NCBI GenBank assembly: GCA_036005065.1
Contig: DASYQW010000123.1
Location: 1-38,070 of the forward strand
DNA: 38,070 bases
Reading direction: 5' to 3'
From: Candidatus Methylomirabilota bacterium
GTDB lineage: Bacteria > Methylomirabilota > Methylomirabilia > Rokubacteriales > DASRDR01
Below the pieces are notes generated by a model. That model had not been told where the DNA came from. It searched no databases and saw only the letters and a program-made list of their open reading frames with translations. The number at the start of each line of letters is the position of its first letter. Position 1 is the first letter of the stretch. Shown piece after piece: positions 4,719 through 33,812 of this stretch. The translations under genes and the position numbers were made by a program.

Positions 4719-5372
4719 ATGGAGCCACTCTGCGCGTTCGATCTCGACCACACCCTCGTCCGCTCGGCGCTCGATCTCGCCGCCATGCGCGCGGACCTCC
4801 GCGTCCTGGCGCTCGAGCGGCGACTCCGCCTGCCCGAGGCGGTCCGTGGCTTCACGGTGGCGCAGACGATCGCCGTCATCGCAACCCAGGCGCCCGAGCT
4901 GGAGCCTCACTGCTGGGGGATCGTCCTCGACCATGAGACGCGCGCGCTCACGTCGGCTCAGTGCGAGCCGGGAGCCCGCGAGACGCTCGAAGCCCTGGCG
5001 GCGGCCGGCTATCCGCTCGCGGTCTGGACCAACAACGCCCGGCCCGCGACGGAGCACGCCCTCGAGCGCTGCGGCTTGCGAGGGTTCCTCGCCACGGTGG
5101 TGACGCGGGACGAGGCGGCGCTGAAGCCCGATCCGGCCGGCCTCACGCTCCTCCGGGCCGCCCATCCCGCGCGGCCGGTCTGGGTGGTGGGGGACTCGTG
5201 GATCGACGGCGCCGCCGCCCAGGCCGGCGGGGCGGCCTTCATCGCCTACGGCGCCGATCCGGCCGAGCTGCGCCGGCGGGACGTGGCCGCGCGACTGATC
5301 ATCCACGATCTCCGGACGCTGCCCGCGTCCCTGGCGGCGCTCGGCGCGCCGGCACCGCCCCGCCGCGTATAA
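4719..5372 (+). CDS. HAD-superfamily phosphatase (217 aa)
   Basis: A soluble haloacid-dehalogenase-type hydrolase, probably a small-molecule phosphatase of the phosphoglycolate phosphatase group. All four HAD motifs are visible: FDLDHTLV with nucleophile Asp8 and acid/base Asp10; VWTNN with Thr104; ALKPDP with Lys136; and VGDSWID with Asp159 and Asp163. A cap insertion lies between residues about 14 and 85. The ATG at 4719 places the nucleophile near the N-terminus, as is usual; upstream in-frame codons give no family-like sequence. It is the first gene of a five-gene plus-strand run (HAD, rarA, ddl, murG-like, LOG). The substrate cannot be told from the sequence. Confidence 0.85.
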   Translation: MEPLCAFDLDHTLVRSALDLAAMRADLRVLALERRLRLPEAVRGFTVAQTIAVIATQAPELEPHCWGIVLDHETRALTSAQCEPGARETLEALAAAGYPLAVWTNNARPATEHALERCGLRGFLATVVTRDEAALKPDPAGLTLLRAAHPARPVWVVGDSWIDGAAAQAGGAAFIAYGADPAELRRRDVAARLIIHDLRTLPASLAALGAPAPPRRV

Positions 5373-5373
5373 T
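5368..5373 (+). promoter_or_regulatory. Possible internal -10 box (TATAAT) for rarA
   Basis: A perfect TATAAT spans the stop codon of the HAD gene and lies 19 bases before the preferred rarA GTG start, leaving room for a short leader holding GAGGCGGA. No clear -35 box is visible, and the match may be chance. Confidence 0.3.
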
Positions 5374-5392
5374 GGGACTCCGAGGCGGAAGC

Positions 5393-6724
5393 GTGGAGCT
5401 GTTCGAGCACGCGACCCAGGAGGCCCGCCGGGGCCGAGCGCCGCTGGCGGAGCGGATGCGCCCGCAGAGCCTGGACGAGTTCGTGGGCCAGGCGCACCTC
5501 CTGGGGCCCGGCCGGCTCCTCCGGACGGCGATCGAGTCGGGCGACCTTCACTCGATGATCCTCTGGGGGCCGCCGGGCACCGGCAAGACCACGCTCGCCG
5601 CGCTCCTCGCCGCCCAGGCCCGCGCCCACTTCGTGAGCTTCTCCGCGGTCCTGTCCGGGGTGAAGGAGATCCGCGCGGTCATCGCCGAGGCCGAGTTGCG
5701 CCTCGCCCGCCTGGGTCAGCGCACCATCCTCTTCGTCGACGAGATCCACCGGTTCAACAAGGCGCAGCAGGACGCCTTCCTGCCTCACGTCGAGCGCGGG
5801 ATCATCATCCTCATCGGGGCCACCACCGAGAACCCCTCCTTCGAGGTGATCGCGGCGCTCCTCTCCCGCTGCCGCGTCTACGTCCTCTACCGCCTGACCG
5901 AGGACGAGATCCTGGCGATCCTGCGACGCGCGCTCGACGACCGCGAGCGCGGCCTGGGCGCGCTCCCGCTCGAGGCGGAGCCGGAAGCGCTCGCCGCCAT
6001 CGCCCGGCTGGCCGACGGGGACGCCCGGAGCGCCTTGAACATCCTCGAGGTGGCCGCGACGCTGGTGACGCCGAGCGAGGGGGTTGGCCGGCTCACGCCC
6101 GGGATCATCCAGGAGGCCGCGCAGCGCAAGGCCCTCCTCTACGACAAGGGCGGCGAGGAGCACTACAACCTCATCAGCGCGCTCCACAAGTCGCTCCGCG
6201 ACTCCGATCCCGACGGGACGCTCTACTGGCTCGCGCGGATGCTGGAGGCGGGCGAGGACCCGCTCTTCATCGCCCGGCGGCTCGTCCGGGCCGCCGCCGA
6301 GGACGTCGGTCTGGCCGACCCGCAGGCGCTCGCCGTCGCGCTGGCGGCCAAGGACGCCTACCACTTCCTGGGAACTCCCGAGGGGGAGCTCGCCCTGGCG
6401 GAAGCCGCGGTCTATCTCGCCTGCGCACCGAAGTCCAACGCGGTCTACACCGCCTTCGACGCCGCCCGCGCGGACGTCCAGGCCCGCCCCGCCGAGCCCG
6501 TCCCGCTTCACCTCCGGAACGCGCCGACCCGCCTCATGAGAGAGCTCGGCTATGGCCGGGAGTACCAGTACGCCCACGACGCGCCGGACGCCGAGGTCGA
6601 CCAGGAGCATCTCCCGCCGGCGCTTCGCGGCCGGAGGTATTACGATCCCGTGGCGCGGGGCTTCGAGGCGGCGATCCGCGAGCGGCTCGCGCGCCGGCGG
6701 GGCGGCGGCGAGGGGACGCCATGA
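5393..6724 (+). CDS. rarA: Replication-associated recombination protein RarA/MgsA (443 aa)
   Basis: AAA+ ATPase of the clamp-loader/RuvB group that acts at stalled replication forks. Walker [10 protein letters not shown] is at 59-67, Walker [10 protein letters not shown] at 113-121 and the sensor-1 region ATTENPSF at 143-150. The C-terminal half has the RarA tetramerisation region, with [19 protein letters not shown] as a family signature. I prefer the GTG at 5393: it gives VELFEH, matching the usual short RarA N-terminus, and has GAGGCGGA upstream. An ATG at 5372 that overlaps the HAD stop codon would add 7 residues. The TGA overlaps the ddl ATG (ATGA), so the two are translationally coupled. 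Length and motifs are normal; identification is secure. Confidence 0.95.
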
Positions 6725-21432: not shown

Positions 21433-22188
21433 ATGCGTCAGGTCCTGGGGGTCGTGCTCGTCCTCGCCTCCTGCTCCGTCGCGGTGGCCCAGGAAGACCG
21501 GCGCGATTCCGGGGGGCGCGGGCTCATCACGTTCGAAGGCCCGGCCGGGCTGTTCATCAACCCCACCTCGGGGACGCTCCCCCGAGGGCAGTTCACCCCC
21601 CAGTACTGCGTGGCCCTGTTCGAGCAGGAGGACGTCGTCGTGGCGTGGCACCAGGCGATGATCGCCTACGGTGTCACCGACTGGCTCGAGGTGGGAGCGA
21701 TCGGCGTCATCGAGCACTTCGACTCCGATCACTCCCTCGCGGCCGGCGGGCCTCTGCTCCGGATCCGCCTGCTCGAGGACGAGGGCTGGCAGCCCGAGGT
21801 GGGGCTGGGCGGCGTGCTCCGCGAGGGCGCGGATGTCCTGACGCGACGCACCGTCTTCGCGGCCGCCTCCAAGCGCTTCCCGATCGACGAGCTGGGTATC
21901 CTGCGCGCGGTGCGCCTCCACACCGGCATCCGCCGATACTGGCAGGACGCCGACGTGAACGCGGCGAACGGCACGGTTGCCTTCCTGGGCGGTGAGCTCG
22001 AGCTGCCCCGGGGTCTCTTCCTGGTGGCGGAGATCTCGACCAGGAGCGAGACGCTGCGGCACACGCCCTTCGCCTTCGGGGTTCAGGTCCGCCGGCCGGA
22101 CGGCTTTGCCTTCACGCTGGCCGTCCTCCAGACCGGCAACCAGGACGGCCTCGGCGCCTACGTCGGCATCGGCATCAACTTCCAGTGA
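21433..22188 (+). CDS. Exported, probably outer-membrane beta-barrel protein (251 aa)
   Basis: No named family is recognised with certainty. The first 20 residues are a signal peptide with an AVAQ-type cleavage site. The mature protein starts with LITFEGPAGLFINPTSG, which resembles the N-terminus of YjbH/GfcD-like exopolysaccharide-associated barrels. It continues with alternating hydrophobic/polar strands (ITYGVTDWLEVGAIG-like, FAFGVQVRRPDGFAFTLAVL) and ends in GIGINFQ, close to the aromatic C-terminus expected for a barrel. GGGAGG upstream of the ATG supports the start. The 3' end overlaps the convergent cyclase gene by 14 bases. Confidence 0.7.
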   Translation: MRQVLGVVLVLASCSVAVAQEDRRDSGGRGLITFEGPAGLFINPTSGTLPRGQFTPQYCVALFEQEDVVVAWHQAMIAYGVTDWLEVGAIGVIEHFDSDHSLAAGGPLLRIRLLEDEGWQPEVGLGGVLREGADVLTRRTVFAAASKRFPIDELGILRAVRLHTGIRRYWQDADVNAANGTVAFLGGELELPRGLFLVAEISTRSETLRHTPFAFGVQVRRPDGFAFTLAVLQTGNQDGLGAYVGIGINFQ

Positions 22189-25100
22189 GGTCCCGGAGGA
22201 GGCGCTCGACGCGCTCGGCGTCACGCTCGGCCCGCATCGCCGCGAAGCGCTCGTGGGCCCGGCCGAGCTCGACCCGGGCCCGCTCGCGATCGCCCGCCTG
22301 CCACAGCGCCTCGGCGCGATAGACCGCCGTCCGGGCGGCCTCCTGGGCGCGCTGGAGGCCCTCGAACGCCTCGAGCGCACGGTCGAGAAGGGCGAGGGCC
22401 TCGCCGGCCGCGCCCGTGGACAGGGCGAGCCGGCCGAGGCCCCGCCAGGCGCCGGCGACCGCCAGCGGATGGCGTGCCTCGTCGTGGGCGGCCACCACGT
22501 CGTCGAAGGCGACGCGGGCCCCGGGGAGATCGCCGGTGAGGAGCCGCGCCTCGCCGAGGACCACCAGCACGAGCCCGCGGAGGAGCACGTTGCCGGAGCC
22601 GCTCAGCGTGTCGAGGGCCCCCTCGGCCAGGACCACGGCCCGCGCGCCCTCCCCCTGCTCCGTCGCCAGGATCGCCAGGTTCCCCTGGGCGAGGGCGGCC
22701 CCGTGGACATTGCCGATGGCGCGGCACGCCGCGAGCGACTGCTCGTGGTGCTCGCGCGCGGTGGCGAAGTCGCCCTCGCTCATCGCCAGGTTGCCGAGGT
22801 TGTTGCGGGCCCCGGCGATGCATTCGGTGTCGCCGGTGCGCTCCCAGATCGTGAGCGCCTGCTCGAAGTAGCCCCGGGCCGCCGGGTAGTCGCCGAGGTC
22901 GCGCGCCGCGTTCCCCAGGTTGTTCGCCGCCCGGGCGCGCTCGGAGAGGCTCCCGACCCGCTCGGCCGCCTCGTAGGCGCGCGCGTAGAGCTCGGCCGCG
23001 TCGGCGAACCGCCCCTGGGTGTGGGCGATCCGGCCCTCCAGCATGTCGGCGCGGATGGAGCTCCCATCGTCCTCCGTTCCGGCCGCCGCCCGTCCCTCGC
23101 CCAGGCGGGCCAGCGCGTCCGCGGCCCGGTCCGCGCGATGGTAGAGATCGGCCAGGTCGTAGAGCGCCTGAACCCGGGTGCCGGCCGCCGTGTCGTCCTC
23201 GCGGGCCAGCACGACGGCGCCGAGCAGGAGGCCTTCGGCCTCCGCCGTCCGTCCGGTGGAGAGGCAGGCGGCCGCCACCAGCCGGTCGCCCTCGGCCCGG
23301 TCACCCGCGCGCGCGGCGAGCGATCGCATCCTCTGGGCATGCTCCTCGGCCAGCCCGTAGGCCCCGACCCGGAGGTGCACGCGGGCGGCCCCGCCGTGCG
23401 CCAGCACGGCCAGGCGGCCCTCGGCCTCCGTGGGGGTGGCGAGCCGCCCGATCATCTCCAGGGCCCGCGCGTAGCGCCGGATCGCCTCGGGGTTGACGAA
23501 GAGCTCGGCGGCCCGATCCCCCGCGCGCAGGTTCGCCAGGGCGGCCTCCGCCCACGATTCAGCGCGCTCGAAGTGGTGGGCGAGGAGCTCGGGGGCCACG
23601 CCGTCGAGCCCGCCCCCCCGCTCGCAGAGGGCCGCCGCGGTCTCGGCGTGGAGGGCCCGGCGCTCCCGGAGCAGCAGGGTCTCGTAGCATGCTTCCTGAA
23701 AGAGCGGCTGGCGGAAGCCCCACCGGCCGGCCCCGAGGTCCGTGATCAGGTCACGGCGACGGAGCCCGGGCAGAAGCTCGGCGACCGGCGGCCCGCGACG
23801 GGCGGGCGCCTGCCGCACCAGCTCGGTCACACCCGGATCGAACTCGACGCCCTGAACGGCACACTGGCCGAGCAGGTCGGCCTCCGCCCGTGGGAGGCGA
23901 TCGAGGCGGGCGACCATCGCCGCCCGGATCGACGCCGGCAGACTCACCGAGGCCGGCTCGGCCTGAGCGCTCCAGCGCCAGCGACCGTCGCCGGTCTGCG
24001 CCAGGATCTTCTGGTCGACGAGCGACCGCATCATCTCCTCGATGAACAGCGGGACACCGGCGGCCCGATCGAGGATGTCCCGCCGCAGCCCGGCGGGCAG
24101 GGTGACATCGCCCACGAGCCGATCGAGCAGCACGCCGGCCGCCTCGTCGCCGAGGCGACCGAGCTGGATCACGACCGAGAGCTCGTGGGGTGGCCGGGCC
24201 TCGTCGCGGGCCGTCACGATCACCGGCATCGGCCAGCCGGTGGGCTCGGCGCCCATCGACTCCAGGAGCTCCACCGAGGCCTCGTCGGCCAGCTCGTAGG
24301 AATCGAGGCCCACCGCGACATCCGGGGCGTGGGTCGCCAGCTCGCGGAGGAGCGTGGCCACGCCGCGCTCGACCATCCGGCGCAACGTCTGTGGATCCGG
24401 ATCGGGGGCCGGCACCCCGAGCCGGCTCGGAGCCGCCAGGTGCCACAGCGCGTCCAGGAACGGGCTCAGGGCCGGACCCAGGGGGGCCAGGGCGCCCGCG
24501 AACGCCGGCCGCGTGGCGGGCGGGGCGGCGTCGCCGGTGAGGTCGCGGACGACGGCCAGGACCAGTCGCCGCGCCAGGCCGAACGGCCGGCGGCGGGCCT
24601 CCGGCGTCGCGACGACGGCGACGAGACGCACATCGGTCAGCCGGCGGGTCGCCTCCTCGACGAGCCGCGTCTTCCCGATGCCCATCTCGCCGCGGATCTC
24701 GATCCAGCGCGCCGATGCCCCCTCGCGGCCGGCGGCGGCGCGCCAGCGGGCCGTGAGCGCCGCCAGCTCGGCCTCCCGCCCGGCGAGCGCGACCGACAGC
24801 CCATCGCGGCCGCGGGGATCGACCTCCGCGACCTCCCGCACGAGCTCGTAGGCCTCGACCGGCTCCGCCTTGCCCTTCACCGTGAGCTGGCGGGGCGGCC
24901 CGAACTCGAACTGCCCGCGCGTCCGCCGGACCACTTCCCGGGAGACGAGCACCCCGCCCGGCGGCGCCGCCGACTCCAGGCGCGAGGCCAGGTTGACGGT
25001 GTCTCCCATGACGGAGTAGTCCATGCGCACGTCCGAGCCGACGCCCCCGGCCAGCACGAGGCCGCAGTGGAGGCCGATCCGCATGCGGAGGGGGACCCCG

Positions 25101-25531
25101 GTGCGCGCTTCGCACCGCTCGGCGAAGCCCGCCAGGAAGACCTGCATCGCCAGCGCCGCCCGGCAGGCCCGCGCCGGGTCGTCCTCGTGGGCGACCGGCG
25201 CGCCGAAGAGGGCCATGACGCTGTCCCCGATGTACTTGTCGACGTAGCCCTCCTCCTCGGAGATCGCCGCACCGAGTCCGGCGAAGCAGTCGTTCATCAC
25301 CGCGTGAACGTCCTCCGGGTCGAGCCGCTCGCTCATCCGGGTGAAGCCGCTGACGTCGGCGAAGAGGACGGCCACCTCGCGCCGCTCGCCGCCCAGCGCG
25401 CCGGCCGGTTCCGGTCTCGGGGCCGGCGGCACCGCCGGCGCGGGCGCGGGAGCGTCGGCGAGCCGCTGGCCGCAGTTCCCGCAGAACTTGAAGCCAGCGG
25501 GGATCTCGGTCGCGCAGGCCGGGCAGATCAT
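22175..25531 (-). CDS. Zinc ribbon - class III cyclase - AAA ATPase - TPR regulator (1118 aa)
   Basis: Domains in order: zinc ribbon with Cys3, Cys6, Cys17 and Cys20 (1-24); Pro/Ala linker (25-48); class III nucleotide cyclase (51-230); STAND/AAA-type ATPase (from about 245); TPR repeats (about 600-1100). The cyclase looks competent: metal-binding Asp59 (LFADVSG) and Asp103, substrate Lys99 (YVDKYIGD), Asp177, and Asn180 with Arg184 (NLASRLES). Walker A is GEMGIGKTRL (281-290); the presumed Walker B segment GLDSYELADEAS departs from the usual EDLHWAD. This architecture is common in mycobacteria, proteobacteria and several soil phyla. Ligand binding by the ATPase-TPR part presumably controls cyclic nucleotide output. 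It lies 28 bases after pmbA. Confidence 0.88.
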   Translation of the reverse strand: MICPACATEIPAGFKFCGNCGQRLADAPAPAPAVPPAPRPEPAGALGGERREVAVLFADVSGFTRMSERLDPEDVHAVMNDCFAGLGAAISEEEGYVDKYIGDSVMALFGAPVAHEDDPARACRAALAMQVFLAGFAERCEARTGVPLRMRIGLHCGLVLAGGVGSDVRMDYSVMGDTVNLASRLESAAPPGGVLVSREVVRRTRGQFEFGPPRQLTVKGKAEPVEAYELVREVAEVDPRGRDGLSVALAGREAELAALTARWRAAAGREGASARWIEIRGEMGIGKTRLVEEATRRLTDVRLVAVVATPEARRRPFGLARRLVLAVVRDLTGDAAPPATRPAFAGALAPLGPALSPFLDALWHLAAPSRLGVPAPDPDPQTLRRMVERGVATLLRELATHAPDVAVGLDSYELADEASVELLESMGAEPTGWPMPVIVTARDEARPPHELSVVIQLGRLGDEAAGVLLDRLVGDVTLPAGLRRDILDRAAGVPLFIEEMMRSLVDQKILAQTGDGRWRWSAQAEPASVSLPASIRAAMVARLDRLPRAEADLLGQCAVQGVEFDPGVTELVRQAPARRGPPVAELLPGLRRRDLITDLGAGRWGFRQPLFQEACYETLLLRERRALHAETAAALCERGGGLDGVAPELLAHHFERAESWAEAALANLRAGDRAAELFVNPEAIRRYARALEMIGRLATPTEAEGRLAVLAHGGAARVHLRVGAYGLAEEHAQRMRSLAARAGDRAEGDRLVAAACLSTGRTAEAEGLLLGAVVLAREDDTAAGTRVQALYDLADLYHRADRAADALARLGEGRAAAGTEDDGSSIRADMLEGRIAHTQGRFADAAELYARAYEAAERVGSLSERARAANNLGNAARDLGDYPAARGYFEQALTIWERTGDTECIAGARNNLGNLAMSEGDFATAREHHEQSLAACRAIGNVHGAALAQGNLAILATEQGEGARAVVLAEGALDTLSGSGNVLLRGLVLVVLGEARLLTGDLPGARVAFDDVVAAHDEARHPLAVAGAWRGLGRLALSTGAAGEALALLDRALEAFEGLQRAQEAARTAVYRAEALWQAGDRERARVELGRAHERFAAMRAERDAERVERLLRDLTGS

Positions 25532-25559: not shown

Positions 25560-26933
25560 TCAGTAGTGGGTCGTCCCCGTGAACGTGAACGCCGCCAGGT
25601 GCACAGCCGGGACGCGGATCGAGCCGGCCTCGAAGTCCCAGAGGTCGAGCCGCTGGAGCTTGAGGACGTGCTCCATCGCGACCACCCCGGCCAGCGCCTC
25701 GTGATAGGACTGGGTGAAGCGGAAGTTCTGCACCGGGGACGCGACCTCGCCGTTCTCGATGAGGAACGTGCCGTCCCGGGTCATGCCGGTCACGATCGTC
25801 CTGAGTGGATGGACCCAGCGGGTATACCAGAAGCGCGAGACCAGGATCCCCCGCTTCACGCCCGCGATCAGCGCCTCCCGGGTCTTGGTCCCGGGCTCGA
25901 GCCGGAGGTGCATCGGGAGGGGCGCGGCCGGCCCGGTGGGGAGCGCGTGGCCCGTGTTCCGGGCGCCGTTCCGCGCGGCCGTCTGCGAGTCGTAGACGAT
26001 CGAGCGGGCGTGCCCGCGCTCGATCAGGACCAGCCGCTCCGAGGGGACCCCCTCGAAGTCGAACGGCCGGGGCAGCCCCTCCGGGTCGACCGGGTCCTCG
26101 ACCAGCGTGACGGTCTCGCCCGTGACACGCTCGCCGAGCCGCCCGCCGACGAAGGAGCGGCCTTCCTCGACGGCAAGCCCGGTGAGCTGGGAGCCCAGGA
26201 ACTCCACCACGTCGGCCACGGCGTAGGGCTCGAGGACCACCTCGTAGGTTCCGGCCGGCACCTCCCGCGGCCGCTGGGCCCGCTGCGCCGTGTGGATCGC
26301 CTCCGCCGCCACCGCGCCGACATCGAGGCGGTCGAGGTCCGCGTGGACCCGGTCGGCATACCCCGAGCCCGCCTCGCCCAGCGCCACGGCCTGCGCCTCG
26401 GCCACGGTCCCGGCGTGATAGGCCCAGGTCCCGTGCGAGTTCGCGACAGCGACCTCGTTCACGGTCGTCGACACGAAGCCGGCCGCGCGGAGCCCGGCGA
26501 CCCGGCTGGGCCCGCAGATGGTGGCCGCCAGGCGCGCGCGCCGCTCGGGCGAGGCGGCGGCGGTGGCCTCGCGGAATGCCGGGGCGTGCGGCGCCGCCCC
26601 GGCCGCCGGGAGCCCGGCCCACTGCGGATTCTCCGGCGCCAGCCGGACCAGCGTGCCGGCTTGCCGGGCGGCCGCGCGGATGCCATCGGGATCGAGGCGG
26701 TTCGTCCAGACCGCGGCCACGCGCTTGCCGGCGACGACCCGAATCCGGAGGTCAGCGCCGGCTGCCGCCACGTTCTGGTGGACCGCGTTGTTCGCGAAGC
26801 GCGTGAGCGCCTGGGTCTGGCCGAGGACCAGCGCCTCCGCCTCGTCGCCCTCCGTCTCCTGGAGCGCCCGCTCGGCCGCCTCGCGGAGCGCCTGCTCGCC
26901 GAAGGCGCCGGGGTGCTCGGGCGGCGCCGTCAC
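25560..26933 (-). CDS. pmbA: PmbA/TldE-like subunit of a TldD-TldE protease (457 aa)
   Basis: Partner of the upstream TldD; known TldD/TldE pairs form a heterodimer that cleaves unfolded peptides, matures microcin B17 and degrades CcdA. This protein has the family fold (FANNAVHQNVAAAGADLRIR near residue 45; GILVSRFWYTRWVHPL and IVTGMTRDGTFLIENGE near the C-terminus) but lacks the HExxxH metal motif, as expected for the TldE side. The GTG start at 26933 overlaps the tldD TGA (GTGA), so the two are made together. No obvious peptide substrate gene lies beside them. Confidence 0.92.
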   Translation of the reverse strand: MTAPPEHPGAFGEQALREAAERALQETEGDEAEALVLGQTQALTRFANNAVHQNVAAAGADLRIRVVAGKRVAAVWTNRLDPDGIRAAARQAGTLVRLAPENPQWAGLPAAGAAPHAPAFREATAAASPERRARLAATICGPSRVAGLRAAGFVSTTVNEVAVANSHGTWAYHAGTVAEAQAVALGEAGSGYADRVHADLDRLDVGAVAAEAIHTAQRAQRPREVPAGTYEVVLEPYAVADVVEFLGSQLTGLAVEEGRSFVGGRLGERVTGETVTLVEDPVDPEGLPRPFDFEGVPSERLVLIERGHARSIVYDSQTAARNGARNTGHALPTGPAAPLPMHLRLEPGTKTREALIAGVKRGILVSRFWYTRWVHPLRTIVTGMTRDGTFLIENGEVASPVQNFRFTQSYHEALAGVVAMEHVLKLQRLDLWDFEAGSIRVPAVHLAAFTFTGTTHY

Positions 26934-28387
26934 CGGAGGACACCCACCCGGACGTTTCGGAAGCGCGCGGGCGCGGCGCCGTGGCCGGTGTGGGCCGACT
27001 GTCCCGGCTGCCCCTTGCCACAGTTCGGCGTGCCCCACATCACCCAGTCGCGCTCCCCGCAGACGGCGTCGCACGAGCCCCAGAACTCGGGCGTGATCCC
27101 GGTGTAGGTGGCGTTCCGGAGCATGGTCCCCGGCTTTCCCCCTCGGATCTCCCAGGCGATCTCGGTGCCGAACTGGAAATTGAGCCGCCGGTCGTCGATC
27201 GACCATGAGCGGTTGGTGTCCATCAGGATGCCCTCGTCCGTGTCCGCGATGAGATTTTCCAGCGTCCACGTCCCGGGCATGACCGACACGTTGGTCATCC
27301 GGATCAGCGGGAGCCTGGCCCAGCCGTCGGCCCGCATGGTCCCGTTCGGCGCCAGGCCGAGGGCGGCGGCCGTCTCACGGCTCGTGAGGTAGCCGACGAA
27401 GCGACCCTCCCGTACGGCCCAGCCCCGGCTGGCCGGCACGCCCTCGTCGTCGAAGCCGAAGGTGCCCAGGCCGCCCGGGAGCACGGCGTCGATCTGGATG
27501 TTGACGTGCTCGCTGCCGTAGCGGAAGCGGCCGAGCCGGTCCGGCGTGAGGAAGGACGTCCCGGCGAAGGCCGCCTCGGTCCCCAGGACGCGGTCGAGCT
27601 CGATCGGGTGGCCGCACGACTCGTGGGTCTGGAGGGCGAGCTGGTTCCCCGAGAGGATGATCGTCGTCCGGATGTCCTGCGGGCACGGCCGGGCCGACAG
27701 GAGGGCGACCGCCTCCTCGGCGATCCGGGGCGCGTGCCCGACCAGGTCCTGCCGGAGGACGAACTCCCAGCCGCCCGTGTTCTGGTGGCGCCCTCCCGAG
27801 TTCGGGTACGAGCGACGCTGCATCTCGCCGGCCCCCACCGCCTCGGCCTCGATGCCGCACCCCGTTTCGTAGAGGACTTGCTCGATGGCGGCCCCTTCGG
27901 CCGAGGCGAAGAGCTTCGTCTCGCGCCAGATCTCGGCCGAAGCCCGGGTCGTCCGGAGCCCCTTGACCGCCCGCATGGCGGCGTCGGCCCGGAGCAAGAG
28001 GTCGACCCGCTCGCCGAGTGGTACGTCGAAGGGGTCGATCACGATGGGCGTCCGGTAGGTCGCCCGGACCGGCGTCACCTCGGCCAGCCGGACGTCGGCC
28101 GCCTTCACGAGCGCGGAAGCCCGCGCGAGCGAGACGGCGAGCGCGGCCACGCGGTCAGCCTCGGTCGCGGTGAGCACCTGGGACGCCGCGAATCCCCAGG
28201 CGCCGTCGGCAATCACGCGGAGGCTGAAGCCGGCGGTATCCTGGCGGGTGAGGGCGTCGAGGTGCCCGTTTCGAACGAGCATGTCCTCGACCTCGCGGTG
28301 GACGAAGCGGGCATCGGCGTAGGTCGCCCCCCGCACCCGGGCGGTGTCGAGCGCGCGGGCGGCGAGGTCCCGGGCCACGGCGATCAC
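26930..28387 (-). CDS. tldD: TldD-family metalloprotease subunit (485 aa)
   Basis: Catalytic partner of PmbA. The zinc site is HESCGH (His255, Glu256, His260), followed by PIELDRVLG; the third ligand region is WGTPNCGKGQPG with Cys456. MLRNATYTGITPEFWGSCDA is also typical. Length matches the family. It starts with ATG at 28387, 42 bases after the stop of the DinB-like gene. By family, the substrate peptide is threaded between TldD and TldE and cut with little sequence specificity. Nothing unusual is seen in the key residues. Confidence 0.93.
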   Translation of the reverse strand: MIAVARDLAARALDTARVRGATYADARFVHREVEDMLVRNGHLDALTRQDTAGFSLRVIADGAWGFAASQVLTATEADRVAALAVSLARASALVKAADVRLAEVTPVRATYRTPIVIDPFDVPLGERVDLLLRADAAMRAVKGLRTTRASAEIWRETKLFASAEGAAIEQVLYETGCGIEAEAVGAGEMQRRSYPNSGGRHQNTGGWEFVLRQDLVGHAPRIAEEAVALLSARPCPQDIRTTIILSGNQLALQTHESCGHPIELDRVLGTEAAFAGTSFLTPDRLGRFRYGSEHVNIQIDAVLPGGLGTFGFDDEGVPASRGWAVREGRFVGYLTSRETAAALGLAPNGTMRADGWARLPLIRMTNVSVMPGTWTLENLIADTDEGILMDTNRSWSIDDRRLNFQFGTEIAWEIRGGKPGTMLRNATYTGITPEFWGSCDAVCGERDWVMWGTPNCGKGQPGQSAHTGHGAAPARFRNVRVGVLR

Positions 28388-28927: not shown

Positions 28928-29087
28928 TCGTCGGGAATCGCCACGCCGCACGCGTCGCGGATCGTTCAGCAGGAGGGGGAGTCCCAACCACTCCCCCTCC
29001 TGGACCTCCCCCACCTGGGAGTCGCGGGCACGCGCGACCCCCCGCCCACTGCTATTCGTCCGGGATCGCCACGCCGCACGCGTCGCG
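28928..29087 (-). repeat. Relic duplicate of the recX 3' end
   Basis: Bases 28928-28959 repeat bases 29056-29087 (32 bases, two mismatches). The second set is the true end of recX (RDACGVAIPDE, stop). In the same frame the upstream-of-dinB copy also reads RDACGVAIPDE, then EDPT and a stop that overlaps the DinB-like ATG. The mismatches fall on third codon positions (ATC/ATT for Ile, CCG/CCC for Pro), so the protein text is unchanged. The copies are separated by about 95 bases that include a perfect hairpin. Confidence 0.8.
28970..29002 (-). terminator. Strong hairpin downstream of recX
   Basis: CAGGAGGGGGAGT and ACTCCCCCTCCTG form a perfect 13 bp stem around a 7-base loop, about 50 bases after the recX stop. 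No T-run follows, so it may act through Rho, as a processing or stability element, or as part of a mobile intergenic repeat. Confidence 0.55.
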
Positions 29088-29573
29088 TACGACGCGGCGG
29101 ACGATGTCACCGGGAAAGCCGCGGCGGAGCAGCCAGGCCTGCAGGCGCCGCCCGGCCCGCTCGGGTGTCGCGCGCCGGAGGAGTGGCAGTCGCCGGGCGG
29201 CCGCCTCGCGCGCTCGTGTCTCCTCGTCGTCGGCGGCGAAGGCCTCGCGGACGGCGGCGTCGACGAGGGGCCGGGCCACGCCCCGGGCGGTCAGCTCCTG
29301 CCGGAGGCGGCGGCTGCCGAGCGCGCGGCCCCGGGCCCGGGACTCCGCCCAGCCGAGGGCGAAGGCCCGGTCGTCCACGTACCCGCGAGCCTCGAGGTCG
29401 GCCACGACGGCCTCGGCGACCTCGGCGGGGGCACCGCGGCGCCGGAGCCGCGCCCGGAGATCGCGCCGGGTCCAGCCCCGGCGGCTCAGAAGGTCCAGCG
29501 CGACGGCCCGGGCCCGCGGCGCGTCAAGGAGGCGCGGTCGCCCGGTCTCGGCCCCGGCGCGACGGGCGGTCAC
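29052..29573 (-). CDS. recX: Regulatory protein RecX (173 aa)
   Basis: Modulator that binds RecA filaments and limits recombinase activity. It consists of three-helix repeats; typical elements are ARAVALDLLSRRGWTRRDLRARL (in part), YVDDRAFALGWAESRA and SRRLRQELTARGV. It starts 15 bases after recA ends, the usual recA-recX arrangement, so expression depends on the recA promoter. The C-terminal RRGFPGDIVRRVV is family-like. It is rich in Arg, as the high GC content favours. The last 11 codons are duplicated further downstream. Confidence 0.9.
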   Translation of the reverse strand: MTARRAGAETGRPRLLDAPRARAVALDLLSRRGWTRRDLRARLRRRGAPAEVAEAVVADLEARGYVDDRAFALGWAESRARGRALGSRRLRQELTARGVARPLVDAAVREAFAADDEETRAREAAARRLPLLRRATPERAGRRLQAWLLRRGFPGDIVRRVVRDACGVAIPDE

Positions 29574-29588
29574 GGCCGGGAATCCGGC

Positions 29589-31727
29589 TCACGCCCCGTC
29601 GCCGCGGGCCTTCAGGCCGACCGCCGAGCGGACCGCCGTCTCGATCTCGGCGGTGACCTTGGGATTCTCGCGGAGGTACTTCCGGGCGTTGTCGCGCCCC
29701 TGCCCGATGCGCTGGTCCCGGTACGAGAACCAGGTTCCGCTCTTCTCGACGATCCCGTGCTCGACGGCGAGGTCCAGGACGTTCCCCTCGCGGGAGATTC
29801 CCTCGCCGTACATCATGTCGAACTCGGCCTCGCGGAACGGGGGCGCCAGCTTGTTCTTGACCACCTTGACCTTGGTCCGGACGCCGATGGACTCGGTGCC
29901 TTGCTTGAGCGCGTCCATGCGGCGGATGTCCAGGCGCACCGAGGCGTAGAACTTGAGCGCGCGGCCGCCGGGGGTGGTCTCGGGAGAGTTGTGGACCACC
30001 ACGCCGTCGACCAGATACGTGTGCTGGCCTTCGATCTCCAGATCGAACCGGTGCATCCCGCGCGTGGCGGGCTTGACGTAGCGATTGAGGATCCGGGCCG
30101 GCACCGCGCGCAAGACCCGGCGCTCGGCCAGGGACTCGGTCTCGGCCACGGGATGCCAGGCGAAGCGGCCACGGAGGCTCGGATGAAGCTTATAGTCCAC
30201 GCTGGGATGGAGATAGGGCGTGATCAGCGCGTGCAGTCGCGCCGTCTGCCGCGAGTCGAACCGGAAGCCGCGGCCGTCATCGCGAGGCCGGCCCACGCCG
30301 AGGCGTTCCAGTGAGGCCATGACTCGTTCCCGCGCCTCGGGCGGCAGCGACTTGTTGTACAGCACGGCCTTTCCCTTGCCCCACCGCGCATATGAGCCGG
30401 CAAACGACCCGTCGTCCCCGTACCAGACCGCCAGCCCTCGGGCATCGAGACGATCGAGCGCTGAACCGGCGGCGGTGCGTCGACCATCCCGATCGTACAG
30501 CTCGGCGCGCAGATCGGCCAGGGCCGGCATCGAGAGCGTGTCGAAGCCGTAGCCGTTCCCCACGGGACCGATCGCCCGAGCGAAGGGGACCAGCATCTCG
30601 TGCTTCCAGCGCAGGTAGTCCTTCTGCGCCGGACCGTGTCCGACCCGGAAGTGTGCCGTATGCGCCCCGGTGCTCCGCAAGGAGCCGTCGCCGAGGCCGC
30701 TGCCGAGCAGGAGCTGGAGCTGGTCCTCGCTCAATCGGTAGTCCGGGACACTGACCAGCACCTCGTGCCCCACCTGGAGAGCGCCCGCCCGCACGCGCCC
30801 ATGCGGCGTGAAGATGATGTGGTTCTCGGTGGCCGCAAAGCAGCGCCGTCCGGAGCGTCCGCCCTCGACCTCGAACTGCAGGAAGTGGTCGGCCCGGCCG
30901 TTGTCGAACCAGTTGACCACCCGGCGCGGCACGATGCGCCCGGTCTTCGGGTCGTAGGACAGGACCTCCACGGGCATGCGCTGGTTGACAATCTTCCCGA
31001 TCTTCGCGCTCGTCCCGTCCGCGAGGGTCACGCGCGTCGAATAATGCATGCACCCGAACATCACCCCGATCTTCTCGCGGATCTGGTTGATGAAGACCAC
31101 CGCCGTCCCCGAGCGCGAGATGGCCGCGGTGAGCTTCCGGAGCGCCTGCGACATGAGGCGGGCCTGGAGGCCGGGGAGGGAATCGCCCATCTCCCCTTCC
31201 AGCTCCGCCTTGGGGACGAGGGCGGCCACCGAGTCCACGACGATGACGTCGATCGCGGCCGAGCGGACCAGGTGCTCGGCGATCTCCAGCGCCTGCTCCC
31301 CCGTGTCGGGCTGCGAGATGAGGAGGTCGTCGATGTTGACCCCGAGCGCCTTCGCGTACTGGGCGTCGAGCGCGTGCTCGGCGTCGATGAAGGCCGCATA
31401 CCCGCCCTGCCGCTGGGCCTCGGCGATCACGTGGAGGGCGAGCGTCGTCTTGCCCGAGGACTCCGGCCCGTAGATCTCGGTGACGCGCCCGCGGGGGACG
31501 CCGCCCACGCCGAGGGCGAGATCGAGCGCGAGGGATCCCGTGGGGATGACGGCGATCTCCTCGAGGGCGCCCGTCGACCCGAGCTTCATGACCGCGCCCT
31601 TGCCGAACTGCCGCTCGATCTGGCTCAGGGCCAGATCCAGCGCTTGCCGGCGGTCTCGATCGGCCTTGGACTCGGCCTTGGACTCGGCCTTGGACTCGGC
31701 CTTCGACTCCCCCTTCGCGTCCGCCAT
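29589..31727 (-). CDS. recA: Recombinase RecA interrupted by an intein (712 aa precursor, about 357 aa mature)
   Basis: Central recombinase and SOS co-protease. With the numbering from the GTG one codon upstream, the N-extein is residues 1-226 and has Walker [10 protein letters not shown] (88-96) and [10 protein letters not shown] (162-171). The C-extein (582-713) resumes at [20 protein letters not shown]. Joined, [11 protein letters not shown] is the normal L2 DNA-binding loop. GGAGG lies six bases before the ATG at 31727, which I prefer to the GTG at 31730. The N-terminus carries four ESKA units. A consensus promoter lies at 31803-31831. recX follows directly. Since RecA is normally needed for repair, the intein must splice efficiently. 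Confidence 0.97.
29988..31052 (-). mobile_element. RecA intein with LAGLIDADG homing endonuclease (355 aa)
   Basis: Residues 227-581 of the precursor, 355 aa. Block A starts at Cys227 ([13 protein letters not shown]); block B has Thr301-x-x-His304 in AATENHII; blocks F and G read [17 protein letters not shown] and VVVHN, with His580 and Asn581 before the first extein residue Ser582. Two LAGLIDADG motifs are present, [10 protein letters not shown] (Asp348) and LAVWYGDDG (Asp440), so the endonuclease may still be active. It sits between Gly and Ser of the L2 loop (Gly204/Asn205 in E. coli numbering). From memory the start resembles the Mycobacterium leprae RecA intein, inserted at the same site; the M. 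tuberculosis intein sits elsewhere. Its DNA looks somewhat less GC-rich than the exteins. Confidence 0.95.
31661..31708 (-). repeat. Tandem 12-bp repeat in the recA 5' end
   Basis: Four head-to-tail 12-base units (CGGCCTTGGACT on the plus strand, one mismatch in the last), encoding repeated Glu-Ser-Lys-Ala in the N-terminal tail of RecA before the conserved core. Such a tract can gain or lose units by slippage without a frameshift. Confidence 0.85.
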
Positions 31728-31802
31728 CACGTCCCTCCGTCGTTCTCCCGCGTCGCGTCCATGCGCGCGGGCCTCGGCCCTCCACCGCGTCGAATCGCCG
31801 CC

Positions 31803-31847: not shown

Positions 31848-32408
31848 TCACCGCGCCGCGAGCGCCTCCTTCGCCAGCACGCTGTGCCGCGCGCCCGCCG
31901 GATGGAGATCCGAGCGCATCAGGTACACCGCGTCGACCGGCGCCTCGCCGTAGCGCTCGGCCGGGGCCGCCAGCGCCTCGACCAGCTCGACCGCCCCGCG
32001 GGGCTGGCGGGCCCGGCCGAGTGTGACGTGGGCATGGAACGGCCGCCCCTCGGGCGGGATCCTCTGCTTCGCCAGCGCGGCCTCCACCCGCGCGTGCAGC
32101 GCCGCCAGCGGCTCGGCGCCCGCCGTCACGCCCACCCACATCACCCGCGGCGCCCGCGCGGTCGGAAAGCCGCCGAACCCCCCCAGCGTCACCGCGAAGG
32201 GGGCTGTCGCCGCGCCGGCCTCGGCCAGGGCCTCGCGGACCCGGCCGAGCGTCGCCTCGTCCACCGACCCGAGGAAGCGGAGCGTGAGGTGGAGGTTGTC
32301 GGCCGCCACCCATGACACGGCTGCCCCGCGCTGGCGCAGGACCCCCGCCGCCTCGTGGATCCGCGCCCGCAGCGCGTCGGGGAGCAGCACCGCGATGAAG
32401 CTTCGCAC
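31848..32408 (-). CDS. thpR: RNA 2',3'-cyclic phosphodiesterase / 2'-5' RNA ligase family (186 aa)
   Basis: Member of the 2H phosphoesterase superfamily; ThpR/LigT opens 2',3'-cyclic phosphates on RNA. The two catalytic HxTL motifs are HLTLRFLG (His40, Thr42) and HVTLGR (His127, Thr129). I place the start at GTG 32408 (RSFIAVLLP), matching the usual N-terminus. A GTG at 32468 would add 20 low-complexity Arg/Pro/Gly residues. Neither has a good Shine-Dalgarno. The gene lies between cinA and recA, and its end is only 16 bases from the recA -35 box, so recA transcription is at least partly separate. Confidence 0.88.
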   Translation of the reverse strand: MRSFIAVLLPDALRARIHEAAGVLRQRGAAVSWVAADNLHLTLRFLGSVDEATLGRVREALAEAGAATAPFAVTLGGFGGFPTARAPRVMWVGVTAGAEPLAALHARVEAALAKQRIPPEGRPFHAHVTLGRARQPRGAVELVEALAAPAERYGEAPVDAVYLMRSDLHPAGARHSVLAKEALAAR

Positions 32409-32582
32409 CCCGCGAGGCGCCGGCTCCCGCGGCGCCGGGGACCCGCGACGTCCGCCCGGTCGTCTCACCGCGGAGCAACCACCGTGCCTACCCCGCGGGT
32501 GTCGGCCGAACCGCCCGACGACGCGCGCCGGACGCGCCGCCGGCGTCGCCGCGTGGATACACGTCGAATCGTGCCGAAGACG

Positions 32583-33812
32583 TCACGGCTCCTGGAGACA
32601 GTAGCGACGGAGGAGGTCCAGCGCCCGCACCGCCGAGAACGCCTTGTTCCTCTCGCGGTCGCTCGCGAACCGGTGGTGCTCCACCGTGACCGCCCCCGGG
32701 TCCGCCAGCGCGATGAACACCGTGCCGACCGGCTTCGTCGGCGTCCCGCCGTCCGGCCCCGCGATGCCTGTGACCGACAGCCCGAGGTCGGTGCCCGCGT
32801 GGACCCGCACGCCGCGGGCCATCGCCGCCGCGCACTCCGCCGAGACCGCCCCGTAGCGCGCCAGCACGGCCTCCGGCACCCCGAGGAGCGCCTGCTTCGC
32901 CGCGTTCGAGTAGACGACGAGGCCGCGCTCGAAGTAGGCCGAGCTCCCGGCCACCTCGGTGAGCCGGTGGCCCACGAGCCCGCCCGTGCACGACTCGGCC
33001 AGGGCCAGCGTGAGGCGCCGGGCCCGCAGGAGCCGCCCGACCACCACCTCGAGCGGCTCGTCGTCCGCTCCGTACCACGCCGGCCCGAGCTCTGCGCGGA
33101 GGGCCGGCTCGACGTCCGCGAGCCGCCCCGCGGCCGCCGCGGCGGTCGGCCCCCGCAGCCGGAGGCGCACCCACACCTCGCCGGCGGCCTCGAAGGCGCG
33201 GCCGCTCACGCCGTCGACGTCGCGGAGGGCCGTCGCCAGGCGGGTTTCCGTCTCGGCGAGGTCGAGCCCGACGAGCCGAAGCGTGTGGACGACGGTGACC
33301 GGCTCGCCGCCGGGCCGCGCGAGGCGCGAGAGCAGGTGCTCCCGCGCCAGCCCGAGCGCCTGCCGCGTCTCGTTCGGAAGGATGGCCACGAGCCCCCCCG
33401 GCACCTCGGCGAGCAGTCCCGGCTCGTCACCGACCGCGGAGACCAGCACCGCGGTGCCCTGGGGGACGAGCGCGAGCCCCTCCGCCCGGCGCGGCATGGC
33501 CTGCCCGCGCCGCGCGAACGCGCTCGACACGGCATCGAGCGCCCGGTCGCTCAGGACGAGCCGCGTCCCCAGAAGCCGCGCGAGGGCCTGGCGGGCGACC
33601 GCGGCGCCCTCGCCCTCGCCGAGGCAGACGACCAGCCCGCCCGCCGCCACCGCCTCCCGGAGGGCCCGCTCGGCCTCGGCTTCGTCGGCCGGGACGACGC
33701 GGCGCCCCCGCACCGGCACGCCGTGGCGCTGGAGCCAGCGGGCGAGCGCTGGGGCCGCGTCGGCCGCGAGGGCCGGATCAGGGGCGACGGTGAGAAGCTC
33801 GGCGGTCGTCAC
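32583..33812 (-). CDS. cinA: CinA-family protein with a degenerate N-terminal domain (409 aa)
   Basis: The C-terminal domain is a clear PncC nicotinamide-nucleotide amidohydrolase: AESCTGGLVGHRLTEVAGSS with catalytic-type Ser274, SNAAK with Lys306, and SVTGIAGPDGGTPTKPVGTV (345-364 region). The N-terminal COG1058 (ADP-ribose pyrophosphatase-like) domain keeps the length and outline (ARWLQRHGVPV, then REAVAAGGLVVCLG) but the signature GGLGPTxDD is replaced by LGEGEGA at 64-70. NMN recycling is thus likely retained while pyrophosphatase activity is doubtful. It starts with GTG at 33812, ten bases after pgpA. Linkage to recA is common in bacteria. The 174 bases up to thpR hold no recognised gene. 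Confidence 0.9.
   Translation of the reverse strand: MTTAELLTVAPDPALAADAAPALARWLQRHGVPVRGRRVVPADEAEAERALREAVAAGGLVVCLGEGEGAAVARQALARLLGTRLVLSDRALDAVSSAFARRGQAMPRRAEGLALVPQGTAVLVSAVGDEPGLLAEVPGGLVAILPNETRQALGLAREHLLSRLARPGGEPVTVVHTLRLVGLDLAETETRLATALRDVDGVSGRAFEAAGEVWVRLRLRGPTAAAAAGRLADVEPALRAELGPAWYGADDEPLEVVVGRLLRARRLTLALAESCTGGLVGHRLTEVAGSSAYFERGLVVYSNAAKQALLGVPEAVLARYGAVSAECAAAMARGVRVHAGTDLGLSVTGIAGPDGGTPTKPVGTVFIALADPGAVTVEHHRFASDRERNKAFSAVRALDLLRRYCLQEP

What the first reader, a model, noticed from the sequence alone, without database searches (positions are those of the whole stretch)
29988..31052. Full-length homing intein splits the DNA-binding loop L2 of RecA
The precursor has every splicing block (Cys227, TxxH, HN then Ser582) and two LAGLIDADG motifs with their acidic residues. 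The insertion falls in [11 protein letters not shown], the most conserved DNA-contact loop, so unspliced RecA should be inactive. recX and the downstream genes share the transcript. A splicing step sensitive to redox or DNA damage could gate recombination, as proposed for other RecA inteins.
Basis: partly seen in the sequence, partly recalled or inferred. Interest (0 to 1): 0.75.

Follow-up and report, generated by a model that had tools for sequence, protein, structure and literature searches.

The report
Self-splicing homing intein interrupting RecA
The recA gene of this Rokubacteria genome is interrupted by an apparently intact self-splicing, self-spreading protein insert (an intein) of a kind already known from leprosy bacilli, and the same element turns up patchily in at least five other bacterial groups, which makes it an ordinary member of a known kind with an unusually clear record of jumping between phyla.

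Summary
recA (window 29589-31730, minus strand) encodes a 713-residue precursor whose residues 227-581 (29988-31052) are a full-length class 1 intein. It has Cys1, a block-B TxxH, F-block Asp, C-terminal His-Asn and Ser+1, plus a two-motif LAGLIDADG endonuclease with its acids intact. It sits one residue past the DNA-contacting Phe of RecA loop L2. It is not an assembly join: 27 of 58 other genomes of the order carry the same element at the same site (two of them as endonuclease-less mini-inteins), and 23 carry intein-free RecA. The same site is occupied in Armatimonadota, Acidobacteriota, Eisenbacteria, Gammaproteobacteria and Actinomycetota.

Intein and host divergences disagree in both directions, the endonuclease is under purifying selection, and presence/absence needs at least 10 changes on the RecA tree. 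The best reading is a mobile homing intein that splices constitutively. The proposed redox gate finds no support: only Cys1 is conserved and +1 is Ser. DNA-damage gating is untested. M. leprae RecA has a similar endonuclease-bearing intein, so this is a new member of a known kind. The breadth of transfer and the Ser/Asn difference at the empty site are the interesting parts.

The parts
29589..31730 (-). recA precursor gene, 713 aa (GTG start at 31730; an ATG follows directly)
   Evidence: one open frame; Pfam RecA in two stretches, RecA_C
31053..31730 (-). N-extein: RecA residues 1-226, ending ...KIGVMFG
   Evidence: aligns to solved RecA structures up to the Gly after the L2 Phe
29988..31052 (-). 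intein, 355 aa (precursor residues 227-581)
   Evidence: intein N- and C-terminal models; 27 other genomes of the order with the same insert; AF2 model mean pLDDT 93
31014..31052 (-). splicing block [14 protein letters not shown], nucleophile Cys1
   Evidence: Cys1 invariant in 35 inteins
30819..30830 (-). splicing block B, TENH (TxxH)
   Evidence: T75 and H78 invariant in 35 inteins
30117..30740 (-). LAGLIDADG homing endonuclease domain (intein residues 105-312, approximate)
   Evidence: Pfam LAGLIDADG_2; Foldseek to I-SceI and PI-PfuI; missing in three natural mini-inteins
30684..30713 (-). first LAGLIDADG-type motif, [10 protein letters not shown]
   Evidence: D122 nearly invariant
30408..30437 (-). 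second LAGLIDADG-type motif, [10 protein letters not shown]
   Evidence: D213 nearly invariant
29988..30053 (-). splicing blocks F and [23 protein letters not shown]
   Evidence: D337, H344, H354, N355 invariant
29985..29987 (-). +1 residue Ser582, codon TCT
   Evidence: Ser in 37 of 37 same-site carriers
29589..29987 (-). C-extein: RecA residues 582-713 (SPETTPGG...) and stop
29052..29573 (-). recX, 15 bp downstream of recA
   Evidence: RecX_HTH1, HTH2, HTH3
31848..32468 (-). 2'-5' RNA ligase / LigT-type gene upstream of recA
   Evidence: Pfam LigT_PEase E 3e-27
32583..33812 (-). cinA, further upstream
   Evidence: Pfam CinA E 7e-58

Best explanation
This is a full-length, class 1, homing-competent intein. 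Inferred splicing: Cys1 makes an N-S acyl shift, Ser+1 takes over the N-extein as an ester, Asn355 cyclises, and an O-N shift leaves native RecA with ...MFG-SPETT.... Inferred homing: the LAGLIDADG_2 endonuclease cuts intein-less recA at the L2 codons, and repair from the intein-bearing copy inserts the element together with flanking DNA. Shown here by sequence: complete catalytic residues, endonuclease under purifying selection, patchy presence and absence, and intein ages that differ from host ages. The element persists mainly as a selfish gene in a site too conserved to mutate away; splicing is probably constitutive under normal growth.
For: All class 1 splicing residues are present, and 28 columns are invariant in 35 same-site inteins. 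AlphaFold gives a confident Hint plus LAGLIDADG fold (pLDDT 93), matching PI-PfuI, I-SceI and the Mtu RecA splicing domain. 28 of 59 genomes of the order, own included, carry it; 23 have empty RecA. At least 10 gain/loss changes are forced by well-supported branches of the RecA tree. Discordant ages: in the gammaproteobacterial pair L094/L104 RecA dS is 0.8-0.9 but intein dS is 0.24-0.33; in the Rokubacteria pair L071/L076 RecA dS is 0.28-0.36 but intein dS is 0.83-1.15. dN/dS of the endonuclease is 0.09-0.23 in every pair where it could be computed. The window intein is 72% identical to an Armatimonadetes one whose RecA is only 69% identical, and only 67% identical to that of the Rokubacterium L083 whose RecA is 83% identical.
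Against: No splicing or cleavage was measured. The intein tree does not reject all Rokubacteria inteins being one group (AU p 0.335), so transfer into or out of the phylum rests on divergence comparisons rather than on that test. No phage or plasmid RecA carrying it was found as a vehicle.
Confidence: 0.9

Rival explanations
1. Regulated intein: splicing is held back until a signal (ssDNA, DNA damage or a host factor) releases it, so that RecA activity is gated after translation.
For: A review reports that M. leprae RecA, whose intein sits at a different site from the Mtu one, splices in mycobacteria but not in E. coli, suggesting a host-specific requirement (PMC5874633). Archaeal RadA intein splicing is enhanced by ssDNA (PMC6195587). 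The insertion point is in the DNA-binding loop.
Against: Only Cys1 is a conserved cysteine and +1 is Ser, so no conserved disulfide switch. Near-identical RecAs (97-99%) lack the intein, and 23 of 59 genomes of the order do without it, so any regulation is dispensable.
Confidence: 0.12
2. Domesticated or degenerate intein that splices but no longer moves.
For: Three relatives have lost the endonuclease domain: two Rokubacteria of 147 and 141 aa and one Eisenbacterium of 179 aa.
Against: The window copy keeps both endonuclease motifs with their acids, a complete domain and a confident fold. Endonuclease dN/dS across the family is low.
Confidence: 0.08
3. Assembly or binning artefact: the intein-bearing recA does not belong to this genome, and the intein-less recA on contig C66 does.
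For: The genome has a second, intein-less RecA at the end of a 5.9 kb contig, and estimated contamination is 4.4%.
Against: The RecA tree puts C66 inside a supported actinobacterial clade and the window RecA with Rokubacteria. Window tetranucleotide make-up correlates 0.995 with another contig of the bin; C66 correlates 0.97, a small difference on a short contig. Many independent assemblies carry the same insert.
Confidence: 0.02

Closest known systems
Mycobacterium leprae RecA intein (PI-MleI; 365 aa, endonuclease present)
   Same: A RecA intein of similar length with a LAGLIDADG endonuclease, at a site different from the M. tuberculosis one (PMC5874633, PMC8861304). From my own knowledge it occupies this same MFG/SPET site (RecA-b in InBase terms). 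Actinomycete inteins of about 364 aa at this site were found here.
   Different: Actinomycete relatives are only 42-50% identical to the window intein. The M. leprae sequence itself was not available for a direct comparison.
Mycobacterium tuberculosis RecA intein (PI-MtuI)
   Same: Class 1 intein in RecA; splicing domain matches in sequence (E 7e-11) and fold (rmsd mostly 1.2-1.5).
   Different: 440 aa, +1 Cys, and inserted further on at VVKNK (site from my own knowledge); about 30% identity over the splicing domain.
Pyrococcus horikoshii RadA intein
   Same: Intein in a RecA-family recombinase; a precedent for ssDNA-responsive splicing (PMC6195587).
   Different: Inserted in the P-loop, not in L2. 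The P-loop site is used by a second intein in some Nitriliruptoraceae RecAs (L098, L100, L101), not here.
I-SceI and other LAGLIDADG endonucleases
   Same: Endonuclease domain fold (TMt up to 0.71).
   Different: I-SceI is an intron-encoded enzyme, not part of an intein, with a different target (own knowledge).

Membership tests
Class 1 intein | Cys/Ser/Thr at position 1, block B TxxH, C-terminal Asn/Gln preceded by His, +1 Cys/Ser/Thr, in frame within a host protein | tested here: met
   C1, T75/H78, H354-N355, S+1, one open frame
Class 1 intein | Hint fold | tested here: met
   AF2 model pLDDT 93; Foldseek to Mtu RecA, DnaB and DnaE inteins
Class 1 intein | autocatalytic splicing | not testable with these tools
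   needs an expression test
LAGLIDADG homing endonuclease (LAGLIDADG_2) | two LAGLIDADG-type motifs with acidic residues in the expected fold | tested here: met
   PF03161 E 1e-14; D122 and D213; I-SceI and PI-PfuI fold matches
LAGLIDADG homing endonuclease (LAGLIDADG_2) | cuts the intein-less allele | not testable with these tools
   needs purified protein; indirect support from purifying selection and distribution
RecA L2-site (RecA-b, M. leprae type) intein | inserted between MFG and SPET of loop L2, homologous to the actinobacterial inteins at that site | tested here: met
   same junction in 37 carriers of several phyla; actinomycete copies 42-50% identical end to end
RecA L2-site (RecA-b, M. 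leprae type) intein | direct homology to the M. leprae sequence | not tested
   M. leprae recA was not among the records reached and the primary papers are not held
Redox-gated intein | conserved second cysteine able to pair with a catalytic cysteine | tested here: not met
   only Cys1 conserved; window exteins have no Cys; the window's Cys71 is not conserved

The most novel reading that the evidence does not exclude
A cross-phylum RecA-L2 homing intein whose splicing needs a signal or host factor tied to DNA binding, and whose spread leaves a mark: carriers always have Ser (codon TCN in Rokubacteria) at +1, while many intein-less relatives have Asn (AAY), which would be splice-incompatible unless flanking DNA is co-converted. 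Ser(TCN) empty alleles could then be former carriers and Asn alleles resistant ones.
Probability: 0.12. Interest if true: 0.6.

Novelty: new member of a known kind. Interest (0 to 1): 0.35.

Why it matters
RecA inteins are best known from mycobacteria. This family extends the L2-site intein to Rokubacteria and several other phyla, with full, mini and empty alleles inside one genus (g12: G020, G015, G055). That gives a natural series for testing the homing cycle, intein loss, and whether inteins in recombinases ever regulate. The 141-147 aa mini-inteins, predicted to splice, may also be useful protein tools.

Tried and rejected
Redox switch: rejected as a family trait for lack of a conserved second cysteine. 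Phage or plasmid carriage: only distant inteins (24-36% identity) were found; the annotated hits and L040 are ligase-like hosts or unnamed, not RecA. Rokubacteria inteins as one exclusive clade: the best tree splits them, but the AU test does not decide (p 0.335). The second RecA (C66): taken as actinobacterial contamination, not an in-genome empty allele. The RecA-like hit on C161 is read as an ImuA-like protein next to a Y-family polymerase-like gene, judged from the translation only. Fisher test of Ser against Asn at +1 (p 6e-6, run on 22 empty alleles) is inflated by relatedness; independent pairs all point the same way but give p 0.06. The precursor AF2 model has low confidence at the junctions and L2 (pTM 0.52), so it was not used for docking arguments. 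Papers combining intein with Rokubacteria: none in the library.

Full report
What is there. The minus strand of 29589-31730 is a single open frame of 713 codons. Residues 1-226 and 582-713 are RecA (Pfam RecA E 2e-133, RecA_C E 1e-25); residues 227-581 are not. NCBIfam recognises intein N- and C-terminal splicing regions at these limits and Pfam a LAGLIDADG_2 endonuclease at 339-475. Aligned to E. coli RecA, the insertion follows the Gly of MFG, chain position 204 in the classic 352-residue E. coli entries. That is directly after the Phe which, from general knowledge of RecA, is Phe203 of DNA-binding loop L2. recX follows 15 bp downstream; a LigT-type gene and cinA lie upstream.

It is real and not a join. 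28 of the 59 genomes of the order that were searched, this one included, have a match, most of them full-length at 65-75% identity, in RecA at the same site; some are cut by contig ends. 23 have RecA without it. A scan of named genomes returned 41 loci: Rokubacteria, Armatimonadetes, Acidobacteria including Pyrinomonadaceae, Eisenbacteria, Competibacteraceae and Contendobacter, and Actinobacteria (Euzebyaceae, Nitriliruptoraceae, Acidimicrobiales, Fodinicola). Almost all have the MFG/C...HN/SPET junctions; two are cut at one end and Fodinicola is broken into frames. In the class of Fodinicola about 24 of 395 genomes carry intact or nearly intact copies; the ten best, which were read, are at the same site, some reading FFG for MFG.

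Anatomy. In 35 same-site inteins the invariant residues include C1, T75, H78, D337, H344, H354 and N355, i.e. the class 1 splicing set; the acids of both LAGLIDADG motifs, D122 and D213, are nearly invariant. AlphaFold models the intein with mean pLDDT 93, and Foldseek finds PI-PfuI and TliVMA overall, I-SceI for the endonuclease part and the Mtu RecA splicing domain, mostly at 1.2-1.5 A rmsd. Three natural mini-inteins, 147, 141 and 179 residues, have lost the endonuclease domain while keeping the splicing residues. In the two Rokubacteria among them no second intact RecA was found, so their RecA presumably depends on splicing; this is indirect evidence that splicing works in the family, an inference and not proof.

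Mobility. Presence against absence needs 12 changes on the RecA tree, at least 10 of them forced by well-supported branches. Carrier and empty RecAs can be 97-99% identical (L077/L045 98.7%, L108/L051 98.7%, L072/L048 97.2%). Intein and RecA divergences disagree both ways: L094/L104 have RecA dS 0.8-0.9 but intein dS 0.24-0.33, so the intein is younger than the host split; L071/L076 have RecA dS 0.28-0.36 but intein dS 0.83-1.15, so those two acquired or kept different intein lineages. The window intein is 72% identical to one in Armatimonadetes with 69% identical RecA, and 67% identical to L083 with 83% identical RecA. Within Rokubacteria the correlation of intein and RecA distances is only 0.25. 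The intein tree splits the Rokubacteria inteins, one group lying beside the Armatimonadetes-Acidobacteria-Eisenbacteria set, but the AU test does not reject a single group. Endonuclease dN/dS is 0.09-0.23 where it could be computed. No carrier phage or plasmid was found.

The +1 residue. All 37 carriers examined have Ser at +1; in Rokubacteria the codon is always TCN. Of 23 empty alleles 14 have Asn (AAY) and 9 Ser. Asn cannot act as the +1 nucleophile, and AAY to TCN needs at least two changes, so either Ser is ancestral and some empty lineages moved to Asn, or homing brings the Ser codon by co-conversion. Relatedness-corrected support is weak (4-5 of 10 pairs in one direction, none in the other, p 0.06).

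Regulation. The window exteins have none, the window's second intein cysteine (71) is not conserved, and +1 is Ser. A DNA-linked gate remains possible: a review notes M. leprae RecA splices in mycobacteria and not in E. coli (PMC5874633), and RadA splicing is enhanced by ssDNA (PMC6195587). But close relatives do without the intein, so any such role is optional.

Known or new. Inteins in RecA have been known since the early 1990s, and M. leprae carries a 365-residue endonuclease-bearing one at a site different from M. tuberculosis (PMC5874633, PMC8861304). I recall, without being able to test it here, that this is the same L2 site. The window element is therefore a new member of a known kind. 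I found no paper in the library joining inteins with Rokubacteria.

Noticed in passing
L098, L100, L101 (Nitriliruptoraceae); L120, L125 (actinomycetes): RecA with two inteins: one in the P-loop (GPESSGK/C...SHN/TTVALH) and one at the L2 site in the same precursor (for L120 and L125 the P-loop N-junction was not read).
   Followed up: partly
L033/L107, L034/L108, L106: Natural mini-inteins of 147, 141 and 179 aa at the same RecA site, each with full-length or empty relatives nearby in the RecA tree.
   Followed up: partly
G000 contig C66 (L036) 5145-5900: A second, intein-less RecA at a contig end, with cinA-like and LigT-like genes before it; groups with actinobacteria, so probably bin contamination.
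   Followed up: yes
window 31660-31709: In-frame 12-bp tandem repeat (4.2 copies, 97% matches) encoding ESKA repeats at the RecA N-terminus, not seen in the relatives read.
   Followed up: no
L109 / G059:C87:14221-15314: Fodinicola feengrottensis RecA intein is split over different frames: a decaying intein or sequencing errors.
   Followed up: no
L040 (viral contig IMGVR_UViG_3300006037_000624): Distant intein (24% identity) inside a ligase-like protein; a phage and a plasmid hit are annotated as RNA ligases (H1, H3), suggesting a related intein lineage in phage-type ligases.
   Followed up: no
window 22175-25531 (-): 1118-aa protein with zinc ribbon, guanylate cyclase, AAA and TPR domains; a PmbA/TldD-like gene lies at 26930-28387 on the same strand.
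   Followed up: no
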